Below the pieces are notes generated by a model, which saw only the letters and a program-made list of their open reading frames with translations, had not been told where the DNA came from and ran no database searches. 64,000 bases of DNA from positions 1,860,001 through 1,924,000 of the forward strand of contig CP114125.1 in assembly GCA_029959195.1 (NCBI GenBank). The letters are read 5' to 3'. The DNA is from Dictyophora rubrovolvata. Its lineage: Eukaryota > Basidiomycota > Agaricomycetes > Phallales > Phallaceae. Shown here one piece after another: positions 33,569-41,241 of this stretch. Every line of letters begins with the position of its first letter. The stretch's first letter is position 1. A program made the position numbers and the translations under genes.

Positions 33569-36500
33569 AGAATGACGTGATCCTCAGATGTCGTCCGAGG
33601 TGTTATTCTTTTATACGCTGGTCATTCCCGATCCGCCGATTACGCGAGGTCTAGGATTAGATAAGAAGAAAGAAGTTTTTGCCATAGTCGTATTTTGATT
33701 TCAAAGAGGATTACGTACACTGGGAGACAAGACTGCATTTTTAGTTAACGTATGGACGCAATCGCGAGGTAACATAATAGAAATCTTACTTGAAATGGAG
33801 AACGTCCGGCACTTCACGGAACTGTCGCAAGAATTGGCAATGTCGAAGCAATTTCAAAGTGGGAAACCCATTGGAATGCGGAACCACGAAAGGAAGCCGA
33901 GGGAATTTTGCCTGACTCTGACACATCAAGATACTGAGAACCATGATTCAAAAAGTGGTCATATTGACCTAGGACATATCAGAGTTTGGCTGTGAAATAA
34001 AGAATAGAGGGCACTTACTGTCTTTGAATGTTGAATTGACACGCCAAGAAGCGGGCGACCAATACTGAAAAACATACTACTAAGAATGACTTGGAGGCTT
34101 CTTGCCACTGTCAGCTGGGCATAGAACTATGGCTGCTGTGGTAAAAACTGAAATTCCATAACTTTAACCTTTTAAGACTGGCCGGAAAGCATTCTTACAG
34201 TGAACGCAAATGAGGACGGTCCGTCCAATTTCAAGGTCCGAAGAGCTTCGGCAAACCACTTCCTTATTCTTGATGAAGCACTTTCAAAAACTAGTAAAAG
34301 GGACTCCGAGTTTGTTCTAACTTTCGTTTGAAAGGCCATTCGAAAACGTCTCTATTGCTATCAGGATGTCAGAGTAGTGGACCGTTTCAAGGCCGTTTCC
34401 GTTTCGATTTCAGGAAAACGGCGAAACGGCTCTCAAGGCGTTTCACTGAACTAAGCAAAAAGACAGTCGTTTACCGTCCGTTTCACTCGCCGGTCATTCT
34501 CGGCCACGGAAGTATTTGAAAGAAAATCCACATTGACCATGTTCGTTGAATCGTTGTACATGTCGTAGCTTGTTCAAACACCATTTATGTAGGCGCGCTC
34601 AGTGACAAGTGAAACTCGTCCTGTTTTGCGTCGATCAATGGCATCGTTGTGTTGTAAATATAAGCCATATATTTTACAATGGATAACATATGTCATAGCC
34701 CATTAACTCACACGACTCATCCAACTACAAACAACAAGCTGACATTATTTCCGCTCCACATCCCGATGGCTTATAAAACATATTTGTACCCGTTTCTTGC
34801 GAAGTTAGATATGCATACACCGCGTTAAGACTGATGTCATATCTACCCGTCTTAGCTACACTCGGACTCCTATTGCGAGATGAGGTTCTTGCTTCAAAAA
34901 AAAAATATCAACAATGACAACAAATTGGGAATGAGAAAGAGTCTCGGAATTGTTTCACCTGCGATAGCCAATGTAATCGGACTTCGGTAAGCTCTCTCAA
35001 TTAATCTATCCATTTCATGTACATACTACTAGTAGTCACATCTGAAATGGCACAACTCCGTTCCTCAGAATATATGTAAAGTTTCACATGTTGTTCTTAA
35101 CTACAGGATTATAATCCATTTGTGAGTCTTAACTCTACATGACCTATCTGACGACATAATTTAGTAATCAAAAAGAGTTTTTTTAGCCCAGTCCGCTTTG
35201 AGAAACTTTCAAGGCGGGACAGGAAACGTTCTGCTCTCGAAATTTTTGCGGTATCCGGAATCCATATTGACAAGCGAACAGTGCTGTGTTTTTAAGGCTT
35301 TATTTTGACATCATTTGTGTCTGCTACCGTGATACCCCCCAAAAGACGTAGTGGGCGATAACATCTAACCTTCAATGTCGGACCCTAAATCATTATTTAA
35401 CAGAGTCGACACCATCGTGAATGCTACACATTTTGTCCACTGCAAGTGATAACATTCACTACCTCAGATGTTGCTTATGCCTTCAACTTGTTCTGATAAG
35501 GAGTGAATAAAGCTAATCATTGTGATCAGTACCAGCTGTACCCCCTAGTATTTTCTCCTTGAGTTCAGGCAGGCCCAATCCACAAGCCTCCCCAAGCTTT
35601 CTTTTTCCTTCCATAAAGACTTGGTCCATTGGTGGCACGGTATCTTTACATTATGTTTACGGAGTTACCTTTGACTCTTAAAGTGATAATTCACTTTGCT
35701 CGGTAATTCCAATGTGCTCTGGACATTGGATTATATCTCGAGTTGTTTGTTGTTTGACAGGTGATCCTTGGGATAGCGATATGATTGCATATATTGCTGT
35801 ATGATATACATACATATGATCGCTTAAAAAGGGAAGAACCAAAGGCTTTATCGAGAGACTTCAGTAGGATTGGTCCGACTGATATGCAAGGGGGGAAAGG
35901 TGTATATTACCGATATAACCGCGTAGTAGAATGATCAACTTAGGGCTTGGTTATTCATCCCTTTAAATCCATGTTTCCGCTCGAATCCTACAGATACGGA
36001 CCGGAACTTTCTTCCATCTTGACTCAATATTCCTTGTTTGCAACCAGACAAATTTTGAGATTTAAACATTCAAGGAACTGTATTACATATCATATCAAAC
36101 CGAAACCCGGTACTTTATTGACATAATTTGACGCCACTTGGCATTGATCAATAACCTCTATATTAGTTTTGCGTCTTTGTTTAAATTCTAAAACGTAATG
36201 AACCCGGGCAGAGTTAAAGTCGGAGTCATCTATAACAATAACCGCTGCCCAGCTTGGCTGGATTGATAGCTAAATGTATCAATCCAGCTGACGAAGGAAT
36301 TAATATTTAAGCGTACTAAACTACGGACTAATAGATAGCAAGAAGCCTTTTCCATGACAAACGTCAGTTTCGAACGAGCCCCACTGGTCTGTAACATGTA
36401 ACATGTCACATATGGTGAGCCCGGAAACGCAACTAGTCCGTAAGATAAGCTTTTCAGTTTATTCTTGTTGCTAAGGTAGCTTCGTCGTATTAATATAACC

Positions 36501-40058: not shown

Positions 40059-41241
40059 ATGTCGGAAGACGAGGGCAAAAAAGTCACGGCGTACAGACTT
40101 GAGTACGCATCATCGGGGTAAGTGACAATGAGGACTGATAAAGCTTTTTTTTTGCGTATCGATTGACTTGGGTTTCTTTAGTCGGTCTAAGTGTAAAGAT
40201 ATGTCGAGAAATATTCTCTTTTTTTTTCTTCTGGATAAACGGCTTATATGGATTGTTGATTACGTCCTAAGCCTTGCGCTGGTATGGATGGATGAAGTTT
40301 ATCCGCCCGTCATTGAGGCCTTAGTCCCATGCTGATACTCGTTTCAATTCTTCGCAGGCACTCTTATTAACAAGGGCGATTTCAGATTCGGAACCCCAGT
40401 CACATTTGCTGGTAGGACGTCAATGTACGTACTATTTTGACGACTCATCGATAACCTAAACGCCAATACCCGTGTTTTTTCCAGGGCATGGCGCCATTGG
40501 GGTTGCGTGACTCCCAAAATCATTAGCAATTTCAGATCCTCTTTATCAAGTGTCGATGAATTAGATGGCTATGAAGAATTGAAAAAGGCTGACAAAGATC
40601 GGGTGCTCGTGGCATGGGAGGAAGGCCACGTTGCGGACGAAGACGTACCAGATACAGCTAGGAAGGGTGCGGTGGATGAAGAGGATGAAGGAGAAAAAAA
40701 AACCGACTCAAAAAAGAAGTCCAGGGCTAAAAAAATCAAGGTAGTGTGCACGTGCGCCTTCAATAATGGGGGCTCAAGTTAATATTTTTAAAAGAAAGAT
40801 GACAATGGCGAGGATGAAGTAGATGCCCCCAAGAAAAAGGCTCCGAAGAAGGCTAGTAGTGGTGCTAAAGAAAAGGCTCCTCCCAAGAAAAAGACCTTAA
40901 AAAAGAAAAAGGTAGTGCTCTAAGTCTTTGATTTATCTTTGAGCAATGGCGAGATTGATTCTAATCGTACTATGTAGACCAGTGATTCAGAAGGCGAAAA
41001 TTTTGAAGATGAGATTGATAAAGTTTCCGATGAGGAGGACGAACCAGAAGATGAAGAGATTGAAGGTGGGAAGAAACGAAAGGTAAATTCGCTTTAAATC
41101 GATATAAATATTAGATTGAAAGACTATCGTTCATAGCGACCCGTGTCCAAAAAGGAAGCTGAGACTAAAAAGTCCAAGAAACCACGTGCGAGAAAGTCAA
41201 AGAAGAAAACCGAGTCAGAAGATGAGGACGATGATAATTGA
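40059..41241 (+). CDS. Stand-alone PARP-type zinc-finger protein
   Basis: Nuclear protein with one PARP-type zinc finger, a nick/break-recognising DNA-binding fold, and a long charged tail. ATG 40059 gives MSEDEGKKVTAYRLEYASSG. The finger then assembles across small exons: RSKCKGPKPCAGTLINKGDF, RFGTPVTFAGRTS, MAWRHWGCVTPKIISNFR. The ligands are Cys (KCK), Cys (KPC), His and Cys (RHWGC). Exon 2 (40182-40198) and exon 3 (40264-40281) are 17 and 18 bases long. They are separated by 40199-40263, which starts ATATGT and ends AC (see findings). The rest is Lys/Glu/Asp-rich (KKKAPKKASSG, EDEPEDEEIEGG), with the last exon ending TESEDEDDDN-stop (41239-41241). No PARP catalytic, BRCT or WGR domain. 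Likely a DNA-repair or chromatin accessory protein. Confidence 0.88.
40199..40263 (+). other. Probable AT-AC intron
   Basis: 65 bases bordered AT...AC. The donor is ATATGT and the end is GATTAC. Removing it joins AAG-TGT-AAA-G to GT-CCT-AAG-CCT-TGC, giving KCKGPKPC, the conserved first half of the PARP-type finger. The available GT-AG alternatives shift the frame or hit a stop. Confidence 0.75.

What the first reader, a model, noticed from the sequence alone, without database searches (positions are those of the whole stretch)
40182..40281. AT-AC intron between two micro-exons inside a PARP-type zinc finger
Seen: the zinc-finger frame is restored only if 40199-40263 is removed. That stretch starts ATATGT and ends GATTAC. 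It lies between a 17-base exon and an 18-base exon which carry the first two Cys ligands (KCK and KPC). Known: rare U2-type introns have a +1 G to A change balanced by a final G to C change, because the first and last intron bases interact; U12 AT-AC introns instead show ATATCC donors. Here the donor is a plain fungal GTATGT with only G1 changed, which points to the U2-type kind. Inference: a paired mutation arose in this gene and works, or the genomic copy is now mis-spliced. GT-AG alternatives shift the frame or run into a stop.
Basis: partly seen in the sequence, partly recalled or inferred. Interest (0 to 1): 0.78.

Follow-up and report, generated by a model that had tools for sequence, protein, structure and literature searches.

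The report
Conserved AT-AC intron in stinkhorn gene
A zinc-finger gene of a stinkhorn-like fungus is cut by an intron that begins with AT and ends with AC instead of the usual GT and AG, and the same odd ends can be read in a distant relative, so the intron looks old and working rather than broken.

Summary
A zf-PARP gene (40059-41241, 8 exons, 247 aa) reads through only if 40199-40263 (65 nt, ATATGT...GATTAC) is removed; its six other introns are GT-AG. In a scan blind to splice signals these ends fit the homologues best among 368 stop-free in-frame pairs. The junction restores CKGPKPC; the Gly it splits is G in 115 of 122 first-finger rows (6 gaps, 1 D).

It does not look private or decayed. 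The genome is Phallales-like. The annotated Sphaerobolus stellatus (Geastrales) orthologue is broken exactly here: back-translated, it holds a retained 64-nt intron AYAARTAY...TTYAC before PKPCSGT in a shifted frame; no GT-AG or GC-AG pair fits. Three unnamed contig proteins placed in the same clade read the spliced KCKGPKPC. No Clathrus or Hysterangium orthologue was among the listed hits.

U2, U4 and U6 genes were found, U12, U11, U4atac and U6atac were not (nor was U1), and the U12 donor and branch motifs are absent. Best reading: a U2-type AT-AC intron, probably fixed before Phallales and Geastrales split. No RNA reads or orthologous DNA were available. New member of a known kind.

The parts
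40059..40117 (+). exon 1 of the zf-PARP gene (59 nt, start ATG at 40059)
40118..40181 (+). intron 1, GTAAGT..TTTAG, 64 nt
40182..40198 (+). micro-exon 2, 17 nt, encodes RSKCK plus the first base of Gly; carries the first Cys ligand
40199..40263 (+). intron 2, the AT-AC intron, 65 nt, ATATGTCGAG...TTGATTAC
40243..40247 (+). candidate branch site CTTAT, A 17 nt from the intron end (consensus match only)
40264..40281 (+). micro-exon 3, 18 nt, encodes (G)PKPCA(G); carries the second Cys ligand
40282..40357 (+). intron 3, GTATGG..CGCAG, 76 nt
40358..40424 (+). exon 4
40425..40484 (+). intron 4, GTACGT..TCCAG, 60 nt
40485..40740 (+). exon 5, His/Cys half of the finger (WRHWGC) and following domain
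40795..40911 (+). exon 6 (Lys/Glu-rich)
40978..41082 (+). exon 7
41137..41241 (+). exon 8 with stop codon

Best explanation
40199-40263 is a real, spliced intron of the major (U2-type) spliceosome whose first base changed G to A and last base G to C. The two changes offset each other because the first and last intron bases contact each other in the second step. The rest of the donor (TATGT) still suits U1 and U6, so U12 machinery is not needed. Removal joins two micro-exons and makes the CKGPKPC start of a PARP-type zinc finger. An intron with A[TC]...AC ends at this site is also readable in Sphaerobolus (Geastrales), so the change most likely predates the Phallales-Geastrales split; broken gene models of other Agaricomycetes suggest that they keep GT here. 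Shown by computation: gene model, best fit of the ends, missing U12 signals, the A...AC ends implied by the Sphaerobolus protein. Inferred: that it is spliced in vivo, that the U2 spliceosome does it, the single origin and its direction.
For: Open 247-codon gene with six other GT-AG introns and strong zf-PARP match. Ends found blind to splice signals are exactly AT...AC. 108 of the 120 listed homologues carry C-[KRSTDN]-G-[PATGSL]-[KML]-P-C. P0046 of Sphaerobolus stellatus reads KCKDKYC...CLFTAQAMQWNYHRES: Asp forces A at intron +1, Thr forces AC at the end, and PKPCSGT fits in a shifted frame at one place only (it fits 5 of 20000 random 45-mers); of the end pairs (intron 40 nt or more, KCK kept, at most 6 residues to PKPC) none is GT-AG or GC-AG. 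The tree groups the query with Sphaerobolus, Ramaria, three unnamed contig proteins and a fragmentary Rhizoctonia row (98/94); the three unnamed ones (P0025, P0028, P0070) read KCKGPKPC. snRNA evidence. Basidiomycota are reported to lack U12 introns (PMC2846911, passages, one from the abstract).
Against: No RNA reads of this species. The Sphaerobolus DNA was not seen; its intron is deduced from an annotated protein, and +2 could be T or C, +5 A or G. U1 was not found either, so failure to find minor snRNAs is not proof; two papers note minor introns or U12 parts in some or many fungi (PMC7072748 and PMC10639083, passages). Branch site CTTAT is weak. Ramaria (P0102) is abnormal at the same place but fits no AT-AC reading that I tried. 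That the unnamed contigs are cDNA is inferred, and P0025 and P0070 are the same in the finger, so they are hardly independent.
Confidence: 0.86

Rival explanations
1. A minor (U12-type) AT-AC intron spliced by a U11/U12 spliceosome that this lineage kept.
For: AT-AC ends and the ATAT start are shared with U12 introns. U1 was missed by the same kind of search, so a diverged U12 could be missed too.
Against: Donor matches 4 of 9 positions of RTATCCTTT, best branch match 6 of 9 and badly placed; U12, U11, U6atac and U4atac have no match over cut-off, and the two weak U4atac hits are U4; U12 donor-plus-branch pattern 2 hits against 1 in the reversed control.
Confidence: 0.04
2. The splice sites are mutated and the gene is decaying; the mRNA is mis-spliced and gives a truncated or KPC-less protein.
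For: GT-AG-only open paths exist (7783) and retention of the intron gives a shifted frame with stops.
Against: The rest of the gene is intact, the own-genome protein search found no paralogue, only this gene and its identical copy (12 matches), and ends of the same kind are readable in another order.
Confidence: 0.06
3. Sequence or assembly error turned GT into AT and AG into AC.
For: The region lies in a stretch duplicated between two contigs, which may be an assembly artefact.
Against: Two separate errors at exactly the paired positions are needed, both copies agree (they may not be independent), and Sphaerobolus shows the same kind of ends.
Confidence: 0.02
4. AT-AC arose separately in Phallales and Geastrales rather than once.
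For: Only two lineages were resolved; Ramaria, which groups nearer to Sphaerobolus than the query does, could not be read.
Against: Same position, same phase, 65 and 64 nt long; two double changes are needed.
Confidence: 0.15

Closest known systems
U2-type AT-AC introns of animal sodium channel genes (SCN4A intron 21; PMC2831892, passages and section 16)
   Same: AT-AC ends, U2-like donor with G at +5, spliced by the major spliceosome
   Different: Here in a fungus, 65 nt long, between two micro-exons; that paper proposes a U12 origin, whereas annotated outgroup proteins here hint at a GT ancestor
G1-to-A with last-G-to-C reciprocal suppression in yeast introns (recalled, from no call)
   Same: Same pair of base changes and same proposed first-last base contact
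   Different: Laboratory mutations; here a natural intron apparently kept in two orders
U12-type AT-AC introns
   Same: Terminal AT and AC
   Different: No ATATCC donor, no well-placed TCCTTRAY branch site, no minor snRNA found
Annotated fungal AT-AC introns (PMC7072748, passages; PMC2846911, passage of Table 2, with 2 'other AT-AC introns' in the basidiomycete Phakopsora pachyrhizi)
   Same: Rare AT-AC introns of fungi
   Different: Those are counts; here one intron is followed into a second order, with the earlier state inferred

Membership tests
U2-type AT-AC (type II) intron | Intron starts AT and ends AC | tested here: met
   best-fitting ends
U2-type AT-AC (type II) intron | Donor otherwise fits the U2 consensus, G at +5 | tested here: met
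   ATATGT in the window; in Sphaerobolus +5 is A or G and cannot be told
U2-type AT-AC (type II) intron | U2-type branch site at ordinary distance | tested here: inconclusive
   CTTAT, 17 nt from the end, fits YTNAY only; no CTRAY
U2-type AT-AC (type II) intron | Excised in vivo with these ends | not testable with these tools
   No RNA reads; spliced-form proteins from contigs in the same clade are indirect
U2-type AT-AC (type II) intron | Depends on U1/U2/U6, not U11/U12/U6atac | not testable with these tools
   Gene content fits in part: U2, U4 and U6 found, minor snRNAs and U1 not found
U12-type intron | RTATCCTT donor | tested here: not met
   4 of 9 positions of RTATCCTTT
U12-type intron | TTCCTTRAY branch site about 10-15 nt before the end | tested here: not met
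   best 6 of 9, 4 or 28 nt from the end
U12-type intron | Minor snRNAs in the genome | tested here: inconclusive
   none over cut-off, but U1, which must exist, was missed too
zf-PARP protein (PF00645) | Score over Pfam's curated cut-off | tested here: met
   76 bits against 39.3

The most novel reading that the evidence does not exclude
The AT-AC intron was fixed in the stem of Phallomycetidae and has been trapped there ever since; it may be one of many, this subclass having a major spliceosome that tolerates A-C terminal pairs unusually well, and slow removal of this intron may control the level of the gene.
Probability: 0.15. Interest if true: 0.75.

Novelty: new member of a known kind. Interest (0 to 1): 0.52.

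Why it matters
Compensated first-last base changes in U2-type introns are known to me mainly from mutants and a few animal genes. A natural case in a fungus in which no minor spliceosome was found, with signs of GT in outgroups and A...AC ends in two orders, makes the origin and persistence of such introns testable by sequencing relatives. It would also explain why a conserved gene is broken in one annotated Phallomycetidae genome and was not among the listed hits for two others: gene finders that allow only GT-AG or GC-AG ends cannot build it.

Tried and rejected
GT-AG and GC-AG solutions: with introns 1, 3 and 4 fixed, none of the 368 stop-free in-frame pairs is GT-AG or GC-AG. With all introns free, the best GT-AG-only path is 16 to 29 bits worse, depending on the homologue set. 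GC-AG paths with all introns free were not scored.

Orthologous DNA: scans of viral contigs and genome contigs found no relative. The genome set holds no relatives of G000. Two protein searches over candidate lengths of about 136-432 aa and 371-1180 aa (ranges computed from the tool's stated factors) listed no protein named Clathrus or Hysterangium; one search listed 120 of 220 hits, all 26; several listed rows have no name.

Ramaria P0102: eight canonical motifs tried in all three frames, none fits; left unresolved. The U1 pattern gave 1 hit against 4 in the control; not taken as U1, and no Rfam family matched that locus at E 0.1.

First homologue profile: its rows were picked by a regex that demands the Gly, which favours my answer, so I repeated it with unselected rows; the lead then falls to 0.6 bits with all 161 rows (second fingers included) and is 2.3 and 4.1 bits with first-finger rows. 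Sphaerobolus: four motifs were tried; PKPCSGT and PKPCSGTITEK fit, PKPCAGT and unsplit GPKPCSGT do not. The ITEK tail was worked out by eye from the protein, so only PKPCSGT counts as a test. Tree: 48 of the 120 listed homologues plus the query were given. The Rhizoctonia row next to the query fills only 48% of columns and its place is unsure.

Full report
What is there. The window lies on contig C9 of a 28.24-Mb, 11-contig genome. At 40059-41241 (+) is an 8-exon gene of 247 codons with one Pfam domain, zf-PARP (E 3.9e-21, 76 bits). Six introns are GT-AG. Intron 2, 40199-40263, is 65 nt, starts ATATGT and ends GATTAC, and lies between a 17-nt and an 18-nt exon that carry the first two Cys ligands. 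The only other matches in the genome are those of an identical copy on C3 (12 matches in all).

Is it more than chance? I removed every possible stretch of 40 nt or more between 40183 and 40280, with no regard to splice signals and introns 1, 3 and 4 fixed: 589 pairs keep the frame, 368 are stop-free. Scored against a profile of homologues, 40199-40263 is the best (171.2 bits, next 167.3). That first profile (106 of 161 domain rows) had been chosen by a motif that includes the Gly at the junction, which favours this answer. With all 161 rows, with the 122 rows that start in the first 60 residues (first fingers), and with 116 of those after dropping six rows of the query's clade, the same pair is still first (163.0 v 162.4; 169.7 v 167.4; 168.7 v 164.6). 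The junction Gly is G in 115 of the 122 rows, a gap in 6 and D in one; the D row is Sphaerobolus. None of the 368 pairs is GT-AG or GC-AG; one other AT-AC pair (40211-40263), one GT-AC and two AT-AG pairs are open but not among the 15 best. If all introns may move (at most 5, of 40-130 nt), 7783 open GT-AG-only paths exist; the best scores 142.3 bits (144.4-148.3 on the other profiles) and loses the KPC ligand. GC-AG paths with all introns free were not scored.

Whose genome. The neighbouring SMP-domain protein is 86% identical to Clathrus columnatus and 68% to Hysterangium stoloniferum, searched with residues 40-440, and at most 48% to the other 118 listed proteins (120 of 294 hits listed). 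This places the genome in or near Phallales, subclass Phallomycetidae (Clathrus lineage; the subclass holds Geastrales, Gomphales, Hysterangiales and Phallales, PMC8299787, passages).

Relatives. 108 of 120 listed homologues carry C-[KRSTDN]-G-[PATGSL]-[KML]-P-C; 2 have the form without micro-exon 3, 10 neither. The two (P0042 Mycena, P0097 Astraeus) lack exactly six residues, as if their gene models skipped the micro-exon. This implies an intron at the same place with a donor that the annotators' software accepted. In three of the ten (P0044, P0116, P0120) the residue after the C-K pair is Gly, as a read-through of G|GT would give. A fourth, P0077 (Gymnopilus), reads E there with four extra residues (ECLS), which fits a model that took an acceptor 12 nt too early. 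These are inferences from proteins; no outgroup DNA was seen.

Sphaerobolus. P0046 (Sphaerobolus stellatus, Geastrales) reads KCKDKYCTNSLTTLIVGLILVCLFTAQAMQWNYHRESAWRHWGC. Back-translated, PKPCSGT fits in a shifted frame at one place only; random 45-residue strings fit it in 5 of 20000 cases, PKPCAGT in 0 of 20000. The longer PKPCSGTITEK also fits there, but I had worked out its tail by eye; PKPCAGT does not fit. This makes the stretch before it a retained intron 2 of 64 nt: Asp forces A at +1 (T or C at +2), then AA[AG]TA; Thr forces AC as the last two bases. Among end pairs with an intron of 40 nt or more that keep KCK, at most six residues, and PKPC in frame, four matches to a tested class remain (three AT-AC, one GT-AC) and none is GT-AG or GC-AG. 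Only the 64-nt AT-AC pair leaves the single residue between KCK and PKPC that is usual in the family.

Spliced form. A tree of 49 rows (query plus 48 of 120 homologues) puts the query with Sphaerobolus, Ramaria, P0028, P0025, P0070 and a fragmentary Rhizoctonia row (98/94). P0028, P0025 and P0070 come from contigs of at most 976, 1124 and 1125 bases without names and read KCKGPKPC (P0028 and P0025 whole). For P0028 and P0025 little room is left for seven introns, so I infer cDNA; P0070 equals P0025 in the finger and adds little. The Ramaria protein P0102 is abnormal at the same place, but I could not read an AT-AC intron from it. No protein named Clathrus or Hysterangium appeared among the listed hits over two length ranges (120 of 220 listed, all 26), which fits a gene that GT-AG gene finders cannot build, but absence has other causes too.

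Which spliceosome. The donor matches the U12 consensus at 4 of 9 positions and keeps G at +5 and T at +6; the best U12 branch match is 6 of 9 and badly placed; a YTNAY site, CTTAT, lies 17 nt from the end. U2 (6 copies), U6 (4) and U4 (2) are found over cut-off. U12, U6atac and U11 have nothing over cut-off; the two weak U4atac hits are U4. U1 was not found either, so these searches miss some snRNAs. A U12 donor-plus-branch pattern gave 2 hits against 1 in the reversed control. PMC2846911 (passages, one from the abstract) reports that Basidiomycota lack U12 introns. [quoted passage not shown] what they say of this subclass I did not see.

Mechanism. In U2-type splicing the first and last intron bases contact each other; changing only one end spoils the second step and the A-C pair restores it (yeast work, recalled). 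PMC2831892 (passages, section 16) describes U2-type AT-AC introns in sodium channel genes and argues that such introns become trapped, since leaving the state needs both ends to change at once. The data fit a trapped intron, but with a likely GT ancestor rather than the U12 ancestor proposed there. I searched the held papers for Sphaerobolus with AT-AC introns and for Phallales with spliceosome and intron: 0 papers each; the listings show no title or abstract start that describes this intron. Genome papers of two Phallus species were seen in passages only and settle nothing here.

Limits. No RNA reads, no orthologous DNA. The two genomic copies are identical and may not be independent.

Noticed in passing
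window 34999-64000; G000:C3:1-41815: The left end of contig C3 repeats C9 from window position 34999 on: the first 10 kb are 100% identical, and near the far end identity is 96-99% up to about C3:41815. C9 has telomere repeats at both ends, so C3 probably carries a misjoined or haplotype piece; the middle was not compared.
   Followed up: partly
G000:C3:3120000-3126376 (L008): The right end of C3 is 27% GC, and reading frames under code 4 resemble mitochondrial LAGLIDADG intron proteins (recognised by eye, not tested), so C3 may be chimeric at both ends.
   Followed up: partly
G000:C9 both ends (L006, L007): Telomere repeat is TTTAGGG (plant-like) rather than the TTAGGG that I recall as usual for fungi.
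   Followed up: no
P0102 (Ramaria rubella): The annotated orthologue is disturbed at the same zinc-finger site (GARCDGPSRRRYLTSDCSGT) but fits none of the readings tried.
   Followed up: partly
G000 snRNA genes: No U1 gene was recognised by the Rfam model or by the 5'-end pattern, though U2, U4 and U6 were clear.
   Followed up: partly
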